NCBI GenBank assembly: GCA_002395865.1
Contig: DGVE01000124.1
Coordinates: 1 to 13,380 of the forward strand
Reading direction: 5' to 3'
Length of the DNA stretch: 13,380 bases
From: Lachnospiraceae bacterium UBA4292
GTDB taxonomy: Bacteria; Bacillota; Clostridia; Lachnospirales; Lachnospiraceae
Each line of letters begins with the position of its first letter. Position 1 is the stretch's first letter. Positions 898 to 9,450 of this stretch are shown here, piece by piece. The position numbers and the translations under genes are program-made. The notes beneath the pieces were generated by a model, which saw only the letters and a program-made list of their open reading frames with translations, was not told where the DNA came from and did not search any database.

Positions 898-1707
898 ATG
901 AGTAAAAAAGTTATACTGGAAGCAAAGGATCTGTCAAAGACATTTTCAAATGAGTCGGTGCAGCAGCACGTGCTGAAAAACCTGGATCTGAAGATATATC
1001 AGGGTGATTTCACGGTGGTCATGGGCAACTCGGGGTCGGGCAAGAGCACGCTCCTGTACGCGCTGTCGGGTATGGACAGGCCGTCGATCGGAAGCATAAG
1101 ATATTATGTGGACACAGAGGAGGGCACGGATATATCGGGCTATTCGAACGATAAGCTGGCGCGCTTCAGAAGGGATCACGTGGGCTTCGTGTTCCAGCAG
1201 AACTATCTGAACGACTCCATGAGCGCCATGGACAATGTGATGATATGCGGTCTCTTAAAGCACAGTGACAGAAAGGCTCTGGCCGAAAGAACAAAGGAGC
1301 TCCTTCATAAGGTGGAGATAAGCGAGCAGGACGGCAGGAAGTTCCCGGGACAGCTCTCGGGAGGACAGCAGCAGAGAGTGGCGGTCATAAGGGGAGTCAT
1401 AAATGAACCGAAGATACTATTCGCGGATGAGCCGACCGGAGCCCTGAACTCACAGAACACGAAGAACGTGCTCGGAATACTTACCGATCTGAACAGCGAA
1501 GGGCAGAGCATAGTGATGGTCACACACACAGTGATGGCGGCGGAACGCGGTAACAGAGTCATCTATCTCTCGGACGGAGTGATATCCGATGAGTGCGATC
1601 TGGGACCATATCTGGGCGACTACAAGGATGAAAAGAACCCGAGGCGTGATGAGGCGCTTGCAAGGCACAGAAAACTCAAGGATTTCCTCGCGGGCATGGG
1701 CTGGTAA
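898..1707 (+). CDS. ABC transporter ATP-binding protein (LolD/MacB/SalX type) paired with FtsX-type permease
   Basis: This 269-residue cytoplasmic ATPase drives the permease encoded 11 bases downstream. Motifs are complete: Walker A GNSGSGKST (43-51), Q-loop glutamine at about 100-101, signature LSGGQ (153-157), Walker B ILFADE (173-178) followed by PTGALN, and H-loop His210. The ADEPTGALN signature and the partner permease place it in the MacB/LolD/SalX group, which energises lipoprotein or antimicrobial-peptide handling by mechanotransmission rather than classical transport. The tail after residue 225, ending KDFLAGMGW, resembles that of ATPases linked to two-component systems in Firmicutes, from memory. 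The start is set by AAGGAG 6 bases upstream. Isoleucine is ATA in 12 of 14 codons, the reverse of gpmI. Substrate is unknown; peptide antibiotic sensing or resistance is an inference from the TCS neighbours. Confidence 0.9.
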   Translation: MSKKVILEAKDLSKTFSNESVQQHVLKNLDLKIYQGDFTVVMGNSGSGKSTLLYALSGMDRPSIGSIRYYVDTEEGTDISGYSNDKLARFRRDHVGFVFQQNYLNDSMSAMDNVMICGLLKHSDRKALAERTKELLHKVEISEQDGRKFPGQLSGGQQQRVAVIRGVINEPKILFADEPTGALNSQNTKNVLGILTDLNSEGQSIVMVTHTVMAAERGNRVIYLSDGVISDECDLGPYLGDYKDEKNPRRDEALARHRKLKDFLAGMGW

Positions 1708-1718
1708 AAGGAGAGGCA

Positions 1719-4118
1719 ATGTACAGATTATTCGTTATAGCAAAGAACAATATAAAAAAGCAGCGCGGTGATATGATCACATTCGGACTGCTGACAGCGA
1801 TAACCGCTTTTCTTATCTTTATCGTAGCTACTTCCTTTGTCGGTATCAATAATGTCTACCGTGACCGCTTTGAGGAGGTGAACGGGGCGCATATCCTTTT
1901 TTCGGTGCCGGAGAACGATAAGGCGGCCGATATTATGGAGGCGGCGCTTAAAAAGAACGCAATAGACGATTACGAGCGATCTGTCATACTCCAGATGTCG
2001 GTAGATTACAGGAATAAAAAGAACAGTGAGTACATGAGTTACTCTTTCATAGCCGAGAGCTTCTCCGATCAGCCCTCGGTAATGAAGGTGGTAGACGAAG
2101 GCAGGAAGTACGGCAGGGATGATGTACTGATACCGCTTTTTATGAAGAGTGAATTCTCTGTTGGAGACACACTTCAGATAAAAGCCGGAGACCGTGTGTA
2201 CGATCTGAATGTGGCCGGTTATGCACAGAACCCGTTCTTCTGCTCGTCGGTATCCGTCAACATCGATTATATCTATCTGTCACAGGATATGATGGATATC
2301 ATGATAAGTGAGAACGCTCCGGGAGAGGAGCTTATAGTCGGCAATTATCTGTATAAGTGCAGAACGTCCATGGAAGGTACCGAGGACATGGATAAGATGG
2401 GCAAGCTCGAAGAGAGCATCGTGAATGACTATAACAGTATCGCCCAGGAAAACAGCTCATCAGGAGCGGGAATGGACCTTGAGATAGGACTTACTATAAA
2501 CTGGGCGCTTATTCTGTGGGGCAATAAGATGCTTCCTCAGATCGTAATGTCCATAATACTGGTATTTGCGGTGATCATAATGGTCATAGCGTTGATAGTC
2601 GTGTCATTCTCCGTGGGCAATTTTATCCGCAGGAACCTGAAGAATACCGGTATACTTGAGGCGAGCGGCTATACGGTGAGCGAGCTCAAGAACGCGCTGA
2701 CCTTACAGATAATGTTTATCGGTCTTCTGGGAACCGTCGCAGGTGTTGGACTCGGCCTTATCACGACGCCTGTGATCAATACGGCGCTGAATGCTCTTCT
2801 GGGCATCAGCTGGAGCGCCGGTGTGGATATTATTATGGCAGGCCTTGTGGCGCTTGGAATGCTGCTTGTGCAGTTAGTGACCGTAAGGATATTGTCACGC
2901 AAATTCAACCGCATAAGTGTGCTTGACGCGTTAAGGGGCGGTATAAACGATCACAACTACCGCAGGAACCTGTTTCCTTTTGAAACGACACATCTTCCCG
3001 TTTCTCTGGTACTTTCGCTGAAGGAAGCTTTCGGAGATATCCGCAGAAATATCATACTTCTGCTCATCACGGCGGTGCTTACGATGAGTACTCTGCTTGG
3101 CTTCGGGCTTGCGGATAATTTCGCGGGCGATCCCGAGGGAACCATTGCCATCATGGGAATGGAATTCGGAGACGCAATGGTCACAGGTAAAAGCGGCTGT
3201 GAGGAGGACCTGCGGCATCTGGAAGGAGTTAAGAATGTCCTCTGCGAGCTGAACTTTGACACGATACTGGAGTATAACGGCGAGTCCGGCAAATTCTCTA
3301 CCATCGTAAATGATGACGGCGCCTATGCCGCAAACAAGGTCATGATAGAGGGACGTTTCCCTGAGAGGAAAAATGAGATCATGCTTACGGCAATAATTGC
3401 GGATAAGTATGAAATAAAGGTCGGTGACGTGGTCACGGTCTCATACGGCAACAATAAAAAAGAGTTTATTGTCTGCGGAATAAATCAGAGGCTGCAGAAC
3501 GCGGGTCAGACGCTCACGCTACTTTTCGAGGGTGCCGAGAGGCTCGGTGTAAGCTCCGACACCATAAACTATTATGTTACACTTAATGAGGGTGTGACAT
3601 ACGATGGATTCGTGGATACACTGAAGGACTATGAGAAGGAGAGCGGCCTGAGCTTTGTGTGCACCAATAGCAATGATTTCATAGGCGGTACCATCAACGG
3701 CGTGACATCGGCGATGAGCATGGTCAGCGTGATATTTTCGGTGCTTACAGTATTGGTGGTGGTATTTGTAGAATCTCTTCTGATAAGAGCGAAGATAAGC
3801 CGAGAGTGGAGGGATATGGGTGTCAGCAAGGCGCTCGGAATGAGCTCCGGCGAGCTGATGATACAGATAGCTTTCTCCAATCTGCCCGTGGTATTCATGG
3901 GTACGGTCCTTGGCGCGCTCATCTCGGGTGAGGCGGGCAAAAACGTCATCAGAATGGCTTTCTACTACATGGGTATCAAGAAGATAGAGTTCAATATATC
4001 TTTCGTCTGGATCGTAGTGGTATCCACAGGCATATGCGCCGTGGCATTTCTTACATCTGCTCTTGCGGGCAGGCGCACAAAAAGGATAATCCCTGTGGAA
4101 ATGATAACAGAGGAATAA
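1719..4118 (+). CDS. FtsX-family ABC transporter permease, duplicated 8-TM form
   Basis: This 799-residue membrane subunit is the partner of the preceding ATPase. Hydrophobic segments at about 20-43, 272-302, 328-358, 366-392, 443-464, 665-689, 713-738 and 758-783 give a 1+3+1+3 topology, that is, two FtsX modules each with a large extracytoplasmic domain (about residues 44-271 and 465-664). The cytoplasmic linker between helices 2 and 3 of each module carries the usual coupling sequence (NLKNTGILEASGYTVSELK; WRDMGVSKALGMSSGELM). The layout differs from BceB, which has ten helices and one large loop, so this is closer to the SalY/MacB-like permeases. AAAGGAG precedes ATG 1719, and the ATPase stop lies 11 bases upstream, so the two are co-transcribed. 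Probable role is sensing or extrusion of an envelope-active compound; the substrate cannot be read from sequence. Confidence 0.88.
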   Translation: MYRLFVIAKNNIKKQRGDMITFGLLTAITAFLIFIVATSFVGINNVYRDRFEEVNGAHILFSVPENDKAADIMEAALKKNAIDDYERSVILQMSVDYRNKKNSEYMSYSFIAESFSDQPSVMKVVDEGRKYGRDDVLIPLFMKSEFSVGDTLQIKAGDRVYDLNVAGYAQNPFFCSSVSVNIDYIYLSQDMMDIMISENAPGEELIVGNYLYKCRTSMEGTEDMDKMGKLEESIVNDYNSIAQENSSSGAGMDLEIGLTINWALILWGNKMLPQIVMSIILVFAVIIMVIALIVVSFSVGNFIRRNLKNTGILEASGYTVSELKNALTLQIMFIGLLGTVAGVGLGLITTPVINTALNALLGISWSAGVDIIMAGLVALGMLLVQLVTVRILSRKFNRISVLDALRGGINDHNYRRNLFPFETTHLPVSLVLSLKEAFGDIRRNIILLLITAVLTMSTLLGFGLADNFAGDPEGTIAIMGMEFGDAMVTGKSGCEEDLRHLEGVKNVLCELNFDTILEYNGESGKFSTIVNDDGAYAANKVMIEGRFPERKNEIMLTAIIADKYEIKVGDVVTVSYGNNKKEFIVCGINQRLQNAGQTLTLLFEGAERLGVSSDTINYYVTLNEGVTYDGFVDTLKDYEKESGLSFVCTNSNDFIGGTINGVTSAMSMVSVIFSVLTVLVVVFVESLLIRAKISREWRDMGVSKALGMSSGELMIQIAFSNLPVVFMGTVLGALISGEAGKNVIRMAFYYMGIKKIEFNISFVWIVVVSTGICAVAFLTSALAGRRTKRIIPVEMITEE

Positions 4119-4141
4119 TGCAGAGATTTATCGGGGGATTA

Positions 4142-4170
4142 TTGAAGAAATATGCTTTGTATGCTATACT
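4142..4170 (+). promoter_or_regulatory. Sigma-A-type promoter for the two-component system genes
   Basis: TTGAAG (4142-4147), a 17-base spacer and TATACT (4165-4170) match the vegetative consensus well. TGC directly before the -10 box makes it an extended -10. Transcription would begin near 4177, giving a leader of about 47 bases before the response regulator start. The same TATACT box is used in front of the ABC operon. This suggests the regulator and kinase can be made independently of the transporter. Confidence 0.7.
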
Positions 4171-4200
4171 GCCTCGCAGAGAGTTTCTGCGGGGCAGTAT
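4166..4200 (+). repeat. 15-bp inverted repeat overlapping the TCS promoter
   Basis: ATACTGCCTCGCAGA (4166-4180) and TCTGCGGGGCAGTAT (4186-4200) are complementary over 15 positions with one G-U pair and a 5-base centre. The left arm starts within the -10 box and covers the start site, so at DNA level it could be an operator. In RNA reading through from the permease gene it would form a strong hairpin. No T-tract follows, so it is not an ordinary terminator; it may be a processing or stability element. Confidence 0.6.
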
Positions 4201-4223
4201 TGCCAGGGATCGGGGAGAATATC

Positions 4224-4931
4224 ATGCATTATGATTGCCTTATAGTTGATGATGAGATCGCCTTATCGAAAATGACGGCGGAGTATTTTGAAATGTTTGA
4301 TGTCAGGACGCAGCATGTGGACAGTGCTGCGTCTTGCTATGACTTTTTGAAGGAGAATACGGCGGATGTCATCCTGCTCGACATCAATCTGGGCGACGGG
4401 CTGGGATTTGAGGTCTGCAAGGTGATACGAGAGAAATACCAGATACCGATACTGTTCATCAGCGCGAGACAGAGCGATGACGACGTGCTGATAGCACTCA
4501 GTGTCGGCGGTGATGACTATGTGAAGAAGCCGTACAGCCTTTCGGTACTTCTGGCTAAGGTAAAGGTCAACTTAAAGAGGGTGAGCCAGCTCAGAGCTCT
4601 CGAGGCGGGACAAACCACGCAGGAGCACAGTGAAGCAGGGGCAGCCAAGCTCGATATAGTTCTGGACGATGCGACTATGTCGGCCATACAAAAAGGCAAC
4701 AGGATAAGCTTAAAAGCCAAGGAATACGCGCTCCTTAAGTGCCTCTACGAACACAGGAATACGATCGTCAGCAAGAACAGGCTTTTTGACGAGGTCTGGG
4801 GTGACGCTTTCTATTCGGATGGTACACTGAATGTTCACATAAGAAAGCTCCGCGAGAAGCTCGAGGAGGATCCGAATGAGCCGAAATACATAAAGACTGT
4901 GTGGGGCACGGGTTATATCCTGGAACTGTAA
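4224..4931 (+). CDS. OmpR/PhoB-family response regulator
   Basis: This 235-residue cytoplasmic transcription factor is the phosphorylation partner of the kinase encoded 1 base downstream. The receiver domain (about 1-120) has the acidic pair Asp9-Asp10, phospho-acceptor Asp53 in LLDINL, Ser80 at the switch position and Lys102 in YVKKP. The C-terminal winged helix (about 140-235) shows the family pattern LKAKEYALLKCL, then VSKNRLFDEVWG, then TLNVHIRKLREKLE and a GTGYIL end. ATG 4224 is chosen because GGGGAG (4212-4217) lies 6 bases upstream and the sequence MHYDCLIVDDE begins exactly as receivers do. An in-frame ATG at 4152 lies inside the promoter and has no ribosome binding site. It probably controls the ABC transporter operon and perhaps its own promoter. 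Confidence 0.92.
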   Translation: MHYDCLIVDDEIALSKMTAEYFEMFDVRTQHVDSAASCYDFLKENTADVILLDINLGDGLGFEVCKVIREKYQIPILFISARQSDDDVLIALSVGGDDYVKKPYSLSVLLAKVKVNLKRVSQLRALEAGQTTQEHSEAGAAKLDIVLDDATMSAIQKGNRISLKAKEYALLKCLYEHRNTIVSKNRLFDEVWGDAFYSDGTLNVHIRKLREKLEEDPNEPKYIKTVWGTGYILEL

Positions 4932-4932
4932 A

Positions 4933-6102
4933 ATGAAGAGATCTGGAAAATTAGCGGTACTGTATATCATTATAATGATCGTGTGCCTCGTCTTCGCGCT
5001 CCGGTATATTTCGGGGCTGAGAGTCGTACCCCGGGGCAGTGATGCCTACGAAGAGGCGGAACTGGAGACATATAAGAAGGTCCATGAAAGCATGGAGGAG
5101 GGGATAGAAAACTACAGGCGCAGTCTGAATATTTGCGTGGTGGTCACATGGTCGGTAGCCCTCGTCGGAGGACTGGCGGTCATAGCCGTGATATACAGAA
5201 GAGAAGTGCGCCCGGTGGAGCAGATGCAGGACTTCGCGAAGGAGATCGCAAAGGGAAACCTGGATGTGCCCCTGCCCATACACAAGGGAGCACACTACGG
5301 TGGCTTCACAGAGAGCTTCGACCTTATGAGGGAGGAACTGAAAGCCTCAAGACAGAGGGAGCTCGAGGCGGATCAAGCCAAAAGAGAGCTGGCCGCGGAA
5401 CTGAGCCACGACTTAAAGACTCCGGTCGCGACGATGAGAGCCACATGCGATGTTCTTGAGCTCTCTTTGAAGAGAAAACTCGCCCAGTCGGGAGGGTCTG
5501 AGACCGGACAGGTCGGTTTTTCTGCTGCTGAGATAGAAGGCCTTAGCGAGAAGATATCCATACTAAGCGATCGGATAAATACCGTGAGCGGGCTGGTGGA
5601 TGACGTTTTCCACGCGAATCTGGACGACATGAAGGAGGTACAGGTATCTCCCGAGGAGACGGAAAGCAGGTGGATCGAGGAGTGCTTCCTTAAGCTGAAG
5701 GATTACGGGAGGATCATTCTGGATGACCACATTCCGGAGTGTCTGGTGTATCTGGACAAACTGCGCATGGAGCAGGTCATCGACAATGTGGTGGGCAATT
5801 CATACAAGTACGCAGGTACGGATATCCACGTCTCATTTTCGGAGGCAGAGGCGGCGAAAGCCGCGGGCGGCAGACCTTCGAGATTTATCAGGATAACGGT
5901 GAGGGATTCCGGCCCGGGTGTGCCCGAGGATGAGCTGCCTCTGGTCATAGAGAAGTATTACCGCGGAAAGAAGGAGAGGGGCAAGCCCGGCTACGGCCTC
6001 GGAATGTACCTCGTAGACCGCTACATGGAGCTTCAGGGAGGCGGTCTGCAGTATCACAATGACGGAGGCTTCGTGGTGGAGCTATTCGTCGCAAGAGTTT
6101 AA
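4933..6102 (+). CDS. Membrane sensor histidine kinase (HAMP-HisKA-HATPase)
   Basis: This 389-residue kinase should phosphorylate the preceding regulator. Two membrane helices (about 7-26 and 67-88) flank an extracytoplasmic loop of roughly 40 residues, larger than in intramembrane-sensing BceS-type kinases but too small for a known sensor domain. A HAMP-like segment follows (about 89-140). The HisKA box AELSHDLKTP places the phospho-acceptor at His159. The ATP-binding domain has an N-box DNVVGNSYKYAG (284-295), G1 DSGPGV (325-330) and G2 GYGLGMYL (353-360). The HisKA helices are separated by a Ser/Gly-rich stretch (about 184-198), slightly longer than usual. The start follows the regulator stop by one base with no good ribosome binding site, so translation is probably coupled. 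With the transporter upstream, sensing of an antimicrobial or envelope stress is likely but unproven. Confidence 0.92.
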   Translation: MKRSGKLAVLYIIIMIVCLVFALRYISGLRVVPRGSDAYEEAELETYKKVHESMEEGIENYRRSLNICVVVTWSVALVGGLAVIAVIYRREVRPVEQMQDFAKEIAKGNLDVPLPIHKGAHYGGFTESFDLMREELKASRQRELEADQAKRELAAELSHDLKTPVATMRATCDVLELSLKRKLAQSGGSETGQVGFSAAEIEGLSEKISILSDRINTVSGLVDDVFHANLDDMKEVQVSPEETESRWIEECFLKLKDYGRIILDDHIPECLVYLDKLRMEQVIDNVVGNSYKYAGTDIHVSFSEAEAAKAAGGRPSRFIRITVRDSGPGVPEDELPLVIEKYYRGKKERGKPGYGLGMYLVDRYMELQGGGLQYHNDGGFVVELFVARV

Positions 6103-6129: not shown

Positions 6130-7692
6130 ATGAGTATATTGAGTGTTGAGCATCTGACCCATGGCTTCGGGGACAGGGCAATATTTGACGATGTATCCTT
6201 CAGGCTTCTGGCAGGGGAGCACATAGGACTGGTCGGCGCCAACGGAGAGGGAAAATCGACCTTCATGAACATAATCACCGGAAGGCTGCTGCCGGACGAG
6301 GGAAACATAGAGTGGGCCAAAAACGTGAAGGTGGGCTATCTGGATCAGCATGCAGTGCTTCGCGAGGGCATGACGATAAGGGATGTGCTCGCGGACGCGT
6401 TTTCGGGGCTGTACGCCCTTGAAGCGCGGATGAATGAGCTCTATCTGAAGATGGGTGAGGCTTCTCCTGAGGAGATGGACGAGCTGATGGAGGAGACCGG
6501 AACCATACAGGACCTTCTGACGAACCACGATTTTTATATGATAGACGCGAAGATCGAGGAGGTTGCGAGGGCACTGGGGCTTATTGATTTAGGCCTTGAA
6601 AGGGATGTTACGGAGCTTTCGGGCGGACAGAGGACGAAGATACTGCTGGGCAAGCTGCTTCTCGAAAAGCCCGACATACTGCTTCTTGACGAGCCGACTA
6701 ACTATCTTGACGAGGAGCACATATCGTGGCTTAAGACCTATCTTCAGAACTATGAAAACGCGTTCATACTGATCTCGCATGATATACCATTCCTGAATAG
6801 TGTGGTCAATATAATCTATCACATGGACGGAAGCAACCACAGTCTGGACAGATACGTGGGCGACTATGATAAGTTCCTCGAGGTCTACGAGATGAAGAAA
6901 TCGCAGCGTGAGGCTGCGTACAACAGACAGCAGCAGGAGATCGCGCAGCTGAAGGATTTCGTGGCAAGAAACAAAGCGCGTGTGGCCACGAGAAACATGG
7001 CCATGTCGCGCCAGAAGAAGCTCGATTCCATGGATATCATAGAGAAGGTCCAGGAAAAGCCGAAGCCTGAGTTCAATTTCAAGGTCGCCCGTACCCCGGG
7101 ACGTATTCTTTTTGAGACGAAGGAGCTGATAATTGGCTACGACGAGCCCCTGTCGTCACCTCTTAATATAACCATGGAGAGAGGAGAGAAGATAGTTCTC
7201 ACCGGTGCGAACGGCATAGGAAAGACCACACTTTTAAAAAGTATTCTTGGTCTCATTCCTGCGTTAGGCGGCAGCGTGGAGGAGGGTGAGAATCTGGAGA
7301 TAGGGTATTTTGAGCAGGAGATGCCCGCGGATATCGATACGACCTGCCTTCAGGAGATATGGAACGAATTTCCCGCGTTCACTCAGTATGAGGTAAGGTC
7401 TGCGCTGGCCAAGTGCGGACTGACTACGAAGCACATAGAGAGCAAGTGCAGGGTGCTGTCGGGCGGAGAGCAGGCGAAGGTGAGACTGTGTAAGCTCATT
7501 AACCGCGAGTCCAATCTTCTGGTGCTGGATGAGCCGACGAATCATCTGGATGTGGACGCTAAGAGTGAGCTGCTTCGTGCTCTGAAGGACTACAGGGGTA
7601 GCATACTGATGGTGTGCCATGAGCCTGAGTTCTATTCGGAGCTTGCAACGAGGGTCATCGACTGCACTAAATGGACGACGAAGGTGGTATAA
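6130..7692 (+). CDS. ABC-F family ATPase (ribosome-associated, two ABC domains, no membrane segment)
   Basis: This 520-residue soluble protein has two ABC domains and no transmembrane segment. Domain 1: Walker A GANGEGKST (36-44), LSGGQ (163-167), Walker B ILLLDE (183-188). Domain 2: GANGIGKTT (359-367), LSGGE (443-447), LLVLDE (463-468), His497 in the H-loop (VCHEPEF where SHDREF is common). The charged, partly helical linker (about 240-325) is the P-site-tRNA-interaction region of ABC-F proteins, which bind the ribosomal E site. Members act as translation factors or protect ribosomes from antibiotics. Size and the DEPTNYLD / DEPTNHLD signatures are typical of YbiT/YkpA-like or unassigned Clostridial members, and resistance cannot be claimed from sequence alone. 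CGGAG (6118-6122) lies 7 bases before the ATG. No terminator separates it from the kinase gene 27 bases upstream, so it may be co-transcribed with the TCS. Confidence 0.9.
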   Translation: MSILSVEHLTHGFGDRAIFDDVSFRLLAGEHIGLVGANGEGKSTFMNIITGRLLPDEGNIEWAKNVKVGYLDQHAVLREGMTIRDVLADAFSGLYALEARMNELYLKMGEASPEEMDELMEETGTIQDLLTNHDFYMIDAKIEEVARALGLIDLGLERDVTELSGGQRTKILLGKLLLEKPDILLLDEPTNYLDEEHISWLKTYLQNYENAFILISHDIPFLNSVVNIIYHMDGSNHSLDRYVGDYDKFLEVYEMKKSQREAAYNRQQQEIAQLKDFVARNKARVATRNMAMSRQKKLDSMDIIEKVQEKPKPEFNFKVARTPGRILFETKELIIGYDEPLSSPLNITMERGEKIVLTGANGIGKTTLLKSILGLIPALGGSVEEGENLEIGYFEQEMPADIDTTCLQEIWNEFPAFTQYEVRSALAKCGLTTKHIESKCRVLSGGEQAKVRLCKLINRESNLLVLDEPTNHLDVDAKSELLRALKDYRGSILMVCHEPEFYSELATRVIDCTKWTTKVV

Positions 7693-7693
7693 T

Positions 7694-9130
7694 ATGGCGC
7701 GTCTTGTTTCAAAGACCGAGGCCAGACAGGTCATGGAAAGGCATGAAGCCCTCATGTGGGCCGTCAGGACGATCATAAACGGCAGGAACGAACTGAAAAA
7801 CACCATATCCGAAGACATACGTCTCGTACTGAGGGAGCAGATGCTGGAGCAGCTTCGCGGGATACCTGTGGAAAAACTCGACTTTAGCAAGACCAGCCAG
7901 AGAGTCGGAACTCTGAAGCGGCACGGGTTGGCCACACTTGAGGACGTTTATCTTATGCCGCAGTCGCAGCCTGAGTCGTTCGGGATCGGGCGATACGATG
8001 CATCGGAGATAATGAGTACCGTGGCTTCTGTTGCCGAGGATATCCTTAAGGAACAGAGACTCGACATGGCTTCGGCCTGTAGAACTGAGGCGTTTGAGAA
8101 GCTCATAAATGATCTCTATGTGTATGCAGGCATCAGGGACATGGCGGCTTCGTGTGAGTACATAGTGCGCAGATACTCGGGCTCGATCGAACTGTACATA
8201 GATTGCCTGCAGCCTGCAGTCTCGGATACGAAATGGCTCCTTACATCCGAGAGGGGGAGGCAGGATGCGCTCAGGGCTTATGACAAGCTTAACGAGCTGT
8301 TCACCTCCGATTCATACGGGGCGGCGCTGGACGGCTTTGCGGGACAACTCGATGCCCTGAGAAATGTCAGCACAGACGAGGCGTGGAGGGAGTATTCCGA
8401 CAACAGATCGTTTTTTGCTGATATCGCGCGGTCGATAGCGCCCGAAAAGATACTGAGTGATGACACATTCGGTATAGCGGAAGACCTGATAGAGACTGTG
8501 AGAATGCGGGAGATATTTGCCGAAGAGTTGAAATGTGACCTCACAGAGACACAGAAGTGGGGAGTAAGGTATATCGTCGACCGAGGAAATGCGTTTCTTG
8601 CCGACTGTGACCGATCCTCGAGGATGCTTCAGACCATAGCGGCGATGGCCTCCCTTCGGCATAGCGGAGGCAGGCATTTCATTATTCTCTGTGATGAGAT
8701 GGCAGTAAGCGGCTGGTGTGAAGGCGTGGAGCGCTTCAGCACGCTAAAAGCATACGGCTTGACGGGCGCTTCCTCGGATGCGGCGACAAATAAATGGCTT
8801 CATGACGGAGGTGTGGCCGTGGCCTGCATGGACGGCGCAGCTGATATAGCGCTGCCTTTTGGCTTCAGGGTGTGCATGATGGCGGTGGATGACGCTCAGC
8901 TTTTGTATACATCCGAGAGACGCGGCTCGGACGTAAGAAGGCTCGGCTTTTGCGCCGACAGACTTTTGTTTCTGTCGGGTACTGTCACGGAAAATGACAG
9001 TGAACAGCTGCTGCCGCTGATAGCGATGCTGCGCGCGGACGTTGCGGGAGAGCTTGAAAATCTTACCGCGCTCAAAAAGAGGTCGGAGTTTAAGAAGACA
9101 TTGTCACAGGTGTTTTTAAGAAGAGCGTAA
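7694..9130 (+). CDS. Degenerate, C-terminally short SNF2-like protein (pseudo-ATPase)
   Basis: This 478-residue protein has no exact functional match known to me. Residues 1-270 are mostly helical; about 62-113 (LKRHGLATLEDV, then FGIGRYDASEI) resembles a helix-hairpin-helix DNA-binding motif. From 283 on the sequence follows the first RecA domain of SNF2 ATPases: LTETQKWGVRYI (Q motif), FLAD then CDRSSRM where DEMGLGKT is expected, LQTIAAMASL, a motif Ia region (LCDEM for CPxS), GGVAVA, VDDAQ (399-402 for DEAH) and LSGTVTEN (427-434, motif III). The Walker lysine and glycines and the DEAH glutamate are gone, and the protein stops at VFLRRA where the second RecA domain should begin. ATP hydrolysis and DNA translocation are therefore unlikely; a binding or scaffold role is inferred. 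ATG 7694 follows AAGGTGG (7681-7687) and lies one base after the ABC-F stop, so translation is probably coupled. No frameshift or RecA2 remnant is seen downstream. Confidence 0.75.
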   Translation: MARLVSKTEARQVMERHEALMWAVRTIINGRNELKNTISEDIRLVLREQMLEQLRGIPVEKLDFSKTSQRVGTLKRHGLATLEDVYLMPQSQPESFGIGRYDASEIMSTVASVAEDILKEQRLDMASACRTEAFEKLINDLYVYAGIRDMAASCEYIVRRYSGSIELYIDCLQPAVSDTKWLLTSERGRQDALRAYDKLNELFTSDSYGAALDGFAGQLDALRNVSTDEAWREYSDNRSFFADIARSIAPEKILSDDTFGIAEDLIETVRMREIFAEELKCDLTETQKWGVRYIVDRGNAFLADCDRSSRMLQTIAAMASLRHSGGRHFIILCDEMAVSGWCEGVERFSTLKAYGLTGASSDAATNKWLHDGGVAVACMDGAADIALPFGFRVCMMAVDDAQLLYTSERRGSDVRRLGFCADRLLFLSGTVTENDSEQLLPLIAMLRADVAGELENLTALKKRSEFKKTLSQVFLRRA

Positions 9131-9160
9131 GTAAGATATAATAGTTTTGAAGGGAGAAGT

Positions 9161-9376
9161 ATGGCCAAAAAGGAAGAAAGATTCATCGTCGTCCACAAGG
9201 AGGGCACAGAATATGATGATCTGGGCAAGCGTATGGTGATGCTCGATCAGGCCACCGGAGTGTACTATCTGGTGCTTGCCGGGGCCAACGGCGCATCGGC
9301 CCTGACACCGCTGCTTGATGAAAACGGGAAGCCGATGCTTTACGATCCGGACTGGTGGAATCGTACGGATGGCTGA
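9161..9376 (+). CDS. Small conserved protein, DUF6440-like
   Basis: This 71-residue protein has no signal peptide or membrane helix. From memory its core, a TGVYYL strand followed by ALTPLLDENGKPM (about 47-59), fits the small Firmicutes family DUF6440, in which a D-x-x-TGV-x-YL strand is followed by GGLTPLLD-x-GKP. Function is unknown. The C-terminal tail YDPDWWNRTDG is short and acidic/aromatic. AGGGAG (9151-9156) lies 4 bases before ATG 9161. A perfect TATAAT (9137-9142) sits in the 30-base gap after the SNF2-like gene, but no matching -35 box is seen, so independent transcription is uncertain. It is the last gene before a terminator. Confidence 0.7.
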   Translation: MAKKEERFIVVHKEGTEYDDLGKRMVMLDQATGVYYLVLAGANGASALTPLLDENGKPMLYDPDWWNRTDG

Positions 9377-9399
9377 TCTCGTCATGTACAGATAAGTCT

Positions 9400-9439
9400 A
9401 AACAGGCTGAGGAGGATAATTCCGCAGCCTGTTTTTATT
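9400..9439 (+). terminator. Rho-independent terminator ending the ABC-F / SNF2-like / DUF6440 transcript
   Basis: AAACAGGCTG (9400-9409) pairs with CAGCCTGTTT (9425-9434). A short inner GGA/TCC pairing lies beyond one mismatch, and the tail reads TTTTTATTT. It is a strong hairpin, 23 bases after the stop codon at 9376. Confidence 0.9.
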
Positions 9440-9450
9440 TATAAAACAGT

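What the first reader, a model, noticed from the sequence alone, without database searches (positions are those of the whole stretch)
7694..9130. Pseudo-SNF2 protein: first RecA domain kept, Walker A and DEAH box eroded, second RecA domain absent
The C-terminal half lines up motif by motif with the first RecA domain of SNF2 ATPases (Q motif 283-294, a LLAD-like strand 301-304, GGVAVA, VDDAQ, LSGTVTEN). DEMGLGKT is replaced by DCDRSSRM and DEAH by DDAQ, and the protein ends where the second RecA domain should start. The rest is uninterrupted, with a good ribosome binding site, so it looks maintained rather than decayed. A catalytically dead SNF2 N-domain with a helix-hairpin-helix-like region could be a DNA- or RNA-binding regulator or an inhibitor of an intact paralogue.
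Basis: partly seen in the sequence, partly recalled or inferred. Interest (0 to 1): 0.75.

Follow-up and report, generated by a model that had tools for sequence, protein, structure and literature searches.

The report
Maintained motor-dead SNF2 helicase paralogue
An uncultured bacterium carries, beside an intact DNA-motor gene, a second copy that has lost the engine but kept the rest of its shape and reading frame, which points to a retained non-motor job rather than junk DNA.

Summary

The same assembly holds the intact paralogue (731 aa, 36% identical). Walker A is kept in 37 of 37 strong N-domain loci checked and in 80 of 80 loci of a second collection. The one other motor-less case is a sister-species gene (P0003) that stops before RecA1, one base from its contig end. 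P0003 and the window copy form a clade (98/96) next to the intact copy, so the dead lineage apparently predates the two species.

Simple decay is unlikely. Fourfold sites are randomised while second codon positions stay 66% identical; 0 of 300 neutral simulations stay stop-free; 52 of 58 hydrophobic core positions stay hydrophobic. The gene abuts an ABC-F gene and is followed by a DUF6440 gene and terminator; this ~1.75-kb block is absent at the sister species' locus.

Best reading: a non-motor pseudo-translocase acting on the intact paralogue or its substrate. That role is inferred; selection after truncation is untested.

The parts
7694..9130 (+). Pseudo-SNF2 gene (P0001, 478 aa plus stop)
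   Evidence: alignment to ten relatives
7694..8521 (+). N-terminal helical domain, residues 1-276
   Evidence: AF2 of residues 1-280 alone pLDDT 89.8, pTM 0.80; 19 of 30 strongly conserved columns kept
7859..8053 (+). Helix-hairpin-helix (RAD51 N-lobe-like) part, about residues 56-120
8522..9127 (+). RecA1 domain without catalytic motifs, residues 277-478
8603..8626 (+). Lost Walker A: DCDRSSRM in place of DEMGLGKT
8888..8899 (+). Lost motif II: DDAQ in place of DEAH
8972..8995 (+). Motif III remnant LSGTVTEN
7681..7687 (+). Possible ribosome-binding site AAGGTGG, inside the end of the ABC-F gene
   Evidence: direct reading
6130..7692 (+). Upstream ABC-F gene; its stop is 1 nt from the P0001 start
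   Evidence: 92% identical match over residues 123-520 in G201
9161..9376 (+). Downstream small DUF6440 gene, same strand
   Evidence: PF20037 3.7e-13
9400..9440 (+). Terminator-like hairpin and U run closing the block
   Evidence: -25.1 kcal/mol, z -6.66; the pattern scan did not list it
7693..9450 (+). Block (P0001, DUF6440, terminator) absent at the orthologous site of G201; there about 110 nt

Best explanation
SHOWN by comparison: P0001 is a paralogue of a solitary HhH-SNF2 protein (P0002 in the same assembly), apparently duplicated within this lineage. It lost ATP-binding and hydrolysis motifs and the whole second motor domain, but kept its reading frame, the hydrophobic core of RecA1 and the N-terminal HhH/helical module. 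It sits as a compact block behind an ABC-F gene. INFERRED: the protein is made and folds; it cannot hydrolyse ATP or translocate. The most likely way it works is as a non-motor competitor or adaptor: the N-terminal module still docks on what the intact enzyme docks on (DNA ends, a structure or a protein partner), or it pairs with P0002, and so tunes P0002's activity or marks its substrate. Confidence: dead, folded, maintained pseudo-translocase about 0.8; acting through P0002 or its substrate about 0.4.
For: Intact paralogue P0002 with DEMGLGKT, DEAH and RecA2 in G000. Walker A keeps 1 of 9 and motif II 2 of 8 conserved columns, while the N-domain keeps 19 of 30. Clade P0001+P0003 98/96, sister to P0002 100/100, in an N-domain-only tree of 29, and 98/97 in a tree of 44. 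N-domain P0001-P0003: second positions 66.1% identical (chance 26.4%), fourfold sites 10 of 43; RecA1 P0001-P0002: 66.2% versus 9 of 35. Neutral simulations: 0 of 300 without a stop in each of three settings and in each of two more. Core hydrophobic positions 52 of 58, versus 44.7 +/- 3.2 (max 52) when decay starts from a 63%-identical homologue and 38.3 +/- 3.4 (max 47) from P0002. AF2 pLDDT 87.5. Codon adaptation 0.667 in frame, 0.528 and 0.513 in the two other frames.
Against: No orthologue with the same truncation and motif losses was found, so selection after truncation is not measured. Pfam finds no HHH_5 in P0001. Its N-domain is acidic (net -11, against -1 in P0002; but intact P0005 and P0006 are -10). 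RecA1 constraint is clearly relaxed: 36% to P0002, where P0002 shares 57-63% with its five nearest intact relatives and 47-54% with three remote ones. Codon adaptation is a little below that of the six neighbouring genes (0.68-0.80). Patchy: G200 has one intact copy, G202 none. P0001 and P0002 lie on different contigs of a 72%-complete assembly, so shared origin is assumed. No expression data.
Confidence: 0.5

Rival explanations
1. Recently dead pseudogene: the copy was a working, diverged helicase until recently, then lost RecA2 and motifs and has simply not yet gathered stops.
For: Relatives outside the genus are intact where checked (37 loci in all, two of them in the genus; 80 of 80 with Walker A and 78 of 80 with DEAH). 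RecA1 shows relaxed constraint. No RecA2 remnant, so one deletion may have truncated it.
Against: Motif losses are many and scattered (8 of 9 Walker A columns). The excess RecA1 divergence would give about 7 to 10 stops under neutrality (0 of 300 runs stop-free), and core hydrophobicity is kept. The sister gene P0003 also has an open N-domain and no motor before its contig ends.
Confidence: 0.27
2. Neofunctionalised protein unrelated to P0002: an HhH/helical scaffold serving the ABC-F and DUF6440 gene group, for example in ribosome or stress response.
For: Tight gene order: ABC-F stop 1 nt before the start, DUF6440 30 nt after, one terminator-like hairpin behind. In G089 the mid-helical domain matches twice in a protein without SNF2 core.
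Against: The linkage is not conserved: G201's ABC-F locus lacks the block and P0003 follows an alcohol dehydrogenase gene (name recalled). DUF6440 matched none of the loci fetched other than the window's own.
Confidence: 0.2
3. Assembly or binning artefact: the truncation or the two-copy state is created by the metagenome assembly.
For: G000 is a 231-contig, 72%-complete assembly with 2% contamination.
Against: The ORF is internal to a 13-kb contig with ordinary genes and a terminator after it. The divergence is spread over the whole length, and codon use is close to the neighbours'.
Confidence: 0.03

Closest known systems
Deinococcus radiodurans PriA pseudohelicase (PMC4504706, passages seen)
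   Same: Bacterial helicase descendant with ruined Walker A and B motifs (catalytic Lys to Arg, as at P0001 residue 310); DNA binding and a physical interaction with a partner helicase are reported there
   Different: PriA is tested in the laboratory and, as recalled, keeps its full length as the single copy; P0001 lacks RecA2, is a second copy, and is untested
Arabidopsis MOM1 (PMC3276543, passages seen)
   Same: Derived from CHD3 chromatin remodellers, with an incomplete, highly degenerate helicase domain
   Different: Eukaryotic, 2001 aa; the helicase part is dispensable for silencing and a small coiled-coil domain suffices
Trypanosomatid deoxyhypusine synthase with a dead paralogue (PMC3663545, abstract seen)
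   Same: Dead paralogue kept beside a live copy; there it activates the live one
   Different: Unrelated enzyme; direct complex shown there, only proposed here
DISARM DrmD (PADLOC PDLC02627)
   Same: Best-scoring PADLOC profile for P0001, spanning N-domain and RecA1
   Different: No PF09369 (DrmB-type) match in 8 of 9 genomes searched; no recurring neighbours in 80 loci of the family

Membership tests
SNF2 ATPases (SF2) | RecA1 fold of SNF2 type | tested here: met
SNF2 ATPases (SF2) | Walker A GKT | tested here: not met
   DCDRSSRM, 1 of 9 conserved columns kept
SNF2 ATPases (SF2) | DEAH-type motif II | tested here: not met
   DDAQ
SNF2 ATPases (SF2) | RecA2 / Helicase_C domain | tested here: not met
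   Absent in protein; only a chance-level match downstream, E 1.1
Pseudohelicase | Descent from a helicase with catalytic motifs lost | tested here: met
Pseudohelicase | Kept by selection after loss of catalysis | tested here: inconclusive
   Indirect signals positive; no same-state orthologue to measure
Pseudohelicase | No ATPase activity in assay | not testable with these tools
   needs purified protein
DISARM DrmD | Profile similarity | tested here: met
   PDLC02627 2e-23
DISARM DrmD | Encoded with DrmA/DrmB and methylase | tested here: inconclusive
   PF09369 not found in 8 of 9 genomes including G000, found in G086 (control rang in 8 of 14); G000 is 72% complete; largest neighbour cluster in 80 loci covers 13
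Pseudogene | Stops or frameshifts | tested here: not met
   open over 478 codons; truncation itself aside
HhH DNA-binding domain | HhH fold | tested here: met
HhH DNA-binding domain | DNA binding | not testable with these tools
   needs an assay

The most novel reading that the evidence does not exclude
One bacterial genus keeps a lineage of motor-less SNF2 paralogues: the window copy lost catalysis and RecA2, its sister in G201 lost the whole motor. They persist as natural dominant-negative or adaptor versions of an intact HhH-SNF2 translocase and move between loci as a small cassette.
Probability: 0.3. Interest if true: 0.62.

Novelty: new variant of a known kind. Interest (0 to 1): 0.46.

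Why it matters
If right, it is a naturally made motor-dead half of a bacterial SNF2 enzyme kept beside its live copy. That would show which parts of these little-studied solitary SNF2 proteins act without ATP, and give a ready separation-of-function tool. I found no such case described in the listings of the searches; that library leaves out most subscription papers.

Tried and rejected
Recent pseudogene by simple decay: rejected as the main reading by codon-position, simulation and core-hydrophobicity tests, but kept as a rival because selection after truncation cannot be measured.

DISARM component: a profile hit only; no PF09369 match in 8 of 9 genomes and no shared neighbours. That PF09369 is the DUF1998 domain of DrmB is recalled.

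Phage or plasmid gene: of 50,697 phage records one unannotated, unverified 7.7-kb record matches P0001 (28.8% identity) and its gene is intact (723 codons, DEMGLGKT, DEAH, TGTALEN). Six of 72,556 plasmid records match at 22-32%. One viral contig encodes a relative, of 32 pattern matches. Mobility is not supported beyond the cassette-like site.

Other apparently short relatives: G378 is an otherwise intact gene with a frame change in RecA1, G566 and L135 run off contigs, and L117 keeps Walker A and DEAH but continues into other sequence. None shares the window's state. Motif II does vary elsewhere: L126 reads DKAH with Walker A intact.

P0003 as proof of a second motor-less gene: held back, because its stop is one base from the contig end. 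AU tests of the alternative groupings are moderate (p 0.036 and 0.080), and long-branch warnings attach to the larger tree.

A first scan of genome contigs with P0001 alone found 57 pattern matches and no relative. DUF6440 has no match in G200, G201 or G202, but that search had no positive control. A search for the alcohol dehydrogenase beside P0003 gave only a 52% match in G000, uninformative. The aldo-keto reductase before P0002 has one match in the three other genus genomes, 52% in G202, with no SNF2 gene next to it. The enzyme names are recalled from sequence.

Literature searches for bacterial SNF2 and inactive helicases returned little.

Full report
Observation. The ORF at 7694-9130 is real and open. 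Its start aligns with the starts of its relatives. Pfam alone sees SNF2 only weakly (E 0.0037) and NCBIfam not at all, but a DrmD SNF2 profile reaches 2e-23 over residues 52-477.

Paralogue. The window's own assembly (G000, 231 contigs, 72% complete) has a second match at C85: a 731-aa protein (P0002), 36% identical over the length of P0001, with DEMGLGKT, DEAH, SGTPLEN and a RecA2. Of the three other genomes held for the genus, G200 has one intact copy, G202 none of the family, and G201 one gene (P0003, 36% identical in the alignment) whose frame closes with TAG just after ...GLKCELKK, one base before the contig ends.

Distribution. P0001 alone as query had matches in 12 of 200 family genomes, the weakest to generic SNF2 frames. 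An N-domain profile matched (E <= 0.001) in 22 of 397 genomes of the family and 29 of 295 of the order, and at E <= 1e-10 in 7 of 391 of the class (the sets overlap, and the weakest hits are probably chance HhH matches). I checked the 37 loci with E <= 1e-10, one per genome, P0002 included, P0001 and P0003 left out. All 37 carry Walker A and DEAH: 35 were found by script and two needed a recheck (one DDMGLGKT variant, one locus cut unevenly). A weaker hit, G089 (1.2e-9), is a 429-aa protein with two matches to the mid-helical domain and no SNF2 core. A scan of genome contigs kept 80 of 165 loci; 80 of 80 have Walker A, 78 of 80 DEAH (one DKAH, one cut by the contig end), and 78 of 80 open frames are at least 714 codons. 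That scan favours intact Q motifs by its patterns. P0001 is thus alone in its state among what was searched, with P0003 as a possible second motor-less gene.

Tree. In an N-domain-only tree of 29 rows (23 of the 80 scan loci and six others) P0001 and P0003 form a clade (98/96) with P0002 as sister (100/100). Forcing P0001 with P0002 is weakly rejected (AU 0.036), P0003 with P0002 not quite (0.080). A 44-row tree (33 of the 80 and eleven others) agrees (98/97 and 100/98) but carries long-branch warnings. The dead lineage therefore seems to predate the split of G000 and G201, whose ABC-F proteins are 92% identical over the 398 residues held.

Selection. Between P0001 and P0003 (N-domain), fourfold sites are at chance (10 of 43) while second positions are 66.1% identical (chance 26.4%); between P0001 and P0002 in RecA1 the figures are 9 of 35 and 66.2%. 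Neutral mutation of P0002 to the observed identity gives 13.5 stops on average; mutation only for the excess loss in RecA1 gives 7.5; the N-domain alone 7.8; 0 of 300 runs were stop-free in each. Starting from a homologue already only 63% identical to P0002 still gives 10.4 stops (0 of 300 stop-free), and hydrophobic core positions fall to 44.7 +/- 3.2 (maximum 52, so the best run equals the 52 of 58 observed); from P0002 they fall to 38.3 +/- 3.4 (maximum 47). Against my reading: RecA1 identity to P0002 is 36%, where P0002 shares 57-63% with its five nearest intact relatives and 47-54% with three remote ones, so constraint there is relaxed, and none of these tests isolates the time after truncation.

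Surroundings. P0001 starts 1 nt after the ABC-F stop. A DUF6440 gene follows 30 nt downstream and a strong hairpin with a U run closes the block. In G201 the ABC-F gene is followed by the polyferredoxin gene; homology stops at the ABC-F end and resumes at window 9451, so the block replaces about 110 nt. Whether it was gained in G000 or lost in G201 is undecided, since the stretches of G200 and G202 that I fetched match only the ABC-F gene. P0002 starts directly after an aldo-keto reductase gene and P0003 ten bases after an alcohol dehydrogenase gene (names recalled), so these three copies are tail-end passengers of unrelated genes. Across 80 loci the largest neighbour cluster covers 13 (ABC-transporter-like, label recalled), and DUF6440 matched none.

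Mechanism. ATP use is excluded as far as sequence can exclude it. Motifs Ia and Ib are also largely lost (2 of 8 and 3 of 7 conserved columns kept), so RecA1 is more likely a folded scaffold than a DNA clamp. The remaining binding module is the HhH/helical N-domain. I therefore favour a non-motor competitor or adaptor for P0002 or its substrate. The acidic shift of the N-domain (net -11; P0003 -13; P0002 -1; intact P0005 and P0006 -10) leaves open that it binds protein rather than DNA.

Comparison. D. radiodurans PriA (PMC4504706, passages) shows that a bacterial helicase can lose Walker motifs and stay useful; MOM1 (PMC3276543, passages) is a CHD3-derived protein with a degenerate helicase; a dead paralogue that activates its live partner is known in trypanosomatids (PMC3663545, abstract); Utp25 is another pseudohelicase (PMC9539457, search listing only). 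DISARM passages were seen in PMC9142583. The window case differs in losing RecA2 altogether while an intact copy sits in the same assembly.

Noticed in passing
L077:3007-4296 (G089:C93): A 429-aa protein with two matches to this family's mid-helical domain and no SNF2 core, two genes upstream of an SbcD-like nuclease gene (label recalled): the N-terminal module may occur without the motor.
   Followed up: partly
L076:5515-7730 (G378): In a one-contig genome the family gene is split by a frame change in RecA1, with both halves otherwise open; a true break or a sequencing error.
   Followed up: no
L173: The only viral-contig match is an intact member beside McrB- and McrC-like genes, so some members may sit in defence islands (labels recalled from sequence).
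   Followed up: no
window 898-6102: ABC transporter, FtsX-like permease, response regulator and histidine kinase in a row, before the ABC-F gene: an arrangement like antimicrobial-peptide sensing modules (labels partly recalled).
   Followed up: no
window 6130-7692: The ABC-F protein just passes NCBIfam's ribosomal-protection-like cut-off (386.1 against 380 bits).
   Followed up: no
L117:4956-6326: A family gene from a pig metagenome with Walker A and DEAH runs into other sequence at motif III: chimera or true truncation.
   Followed up: partly
L126: A family member with intact Walker A reads DKAH in motif II: a single-site change or an inactive enzyme.
   Followed up: no
L033 and L047 (G380), L052 (G486), L177 and L180 (G703): Some members (910-963 codons) give a second match to the mid-helical part of the N-domain, as if it were duplicated.
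   Followed up: no
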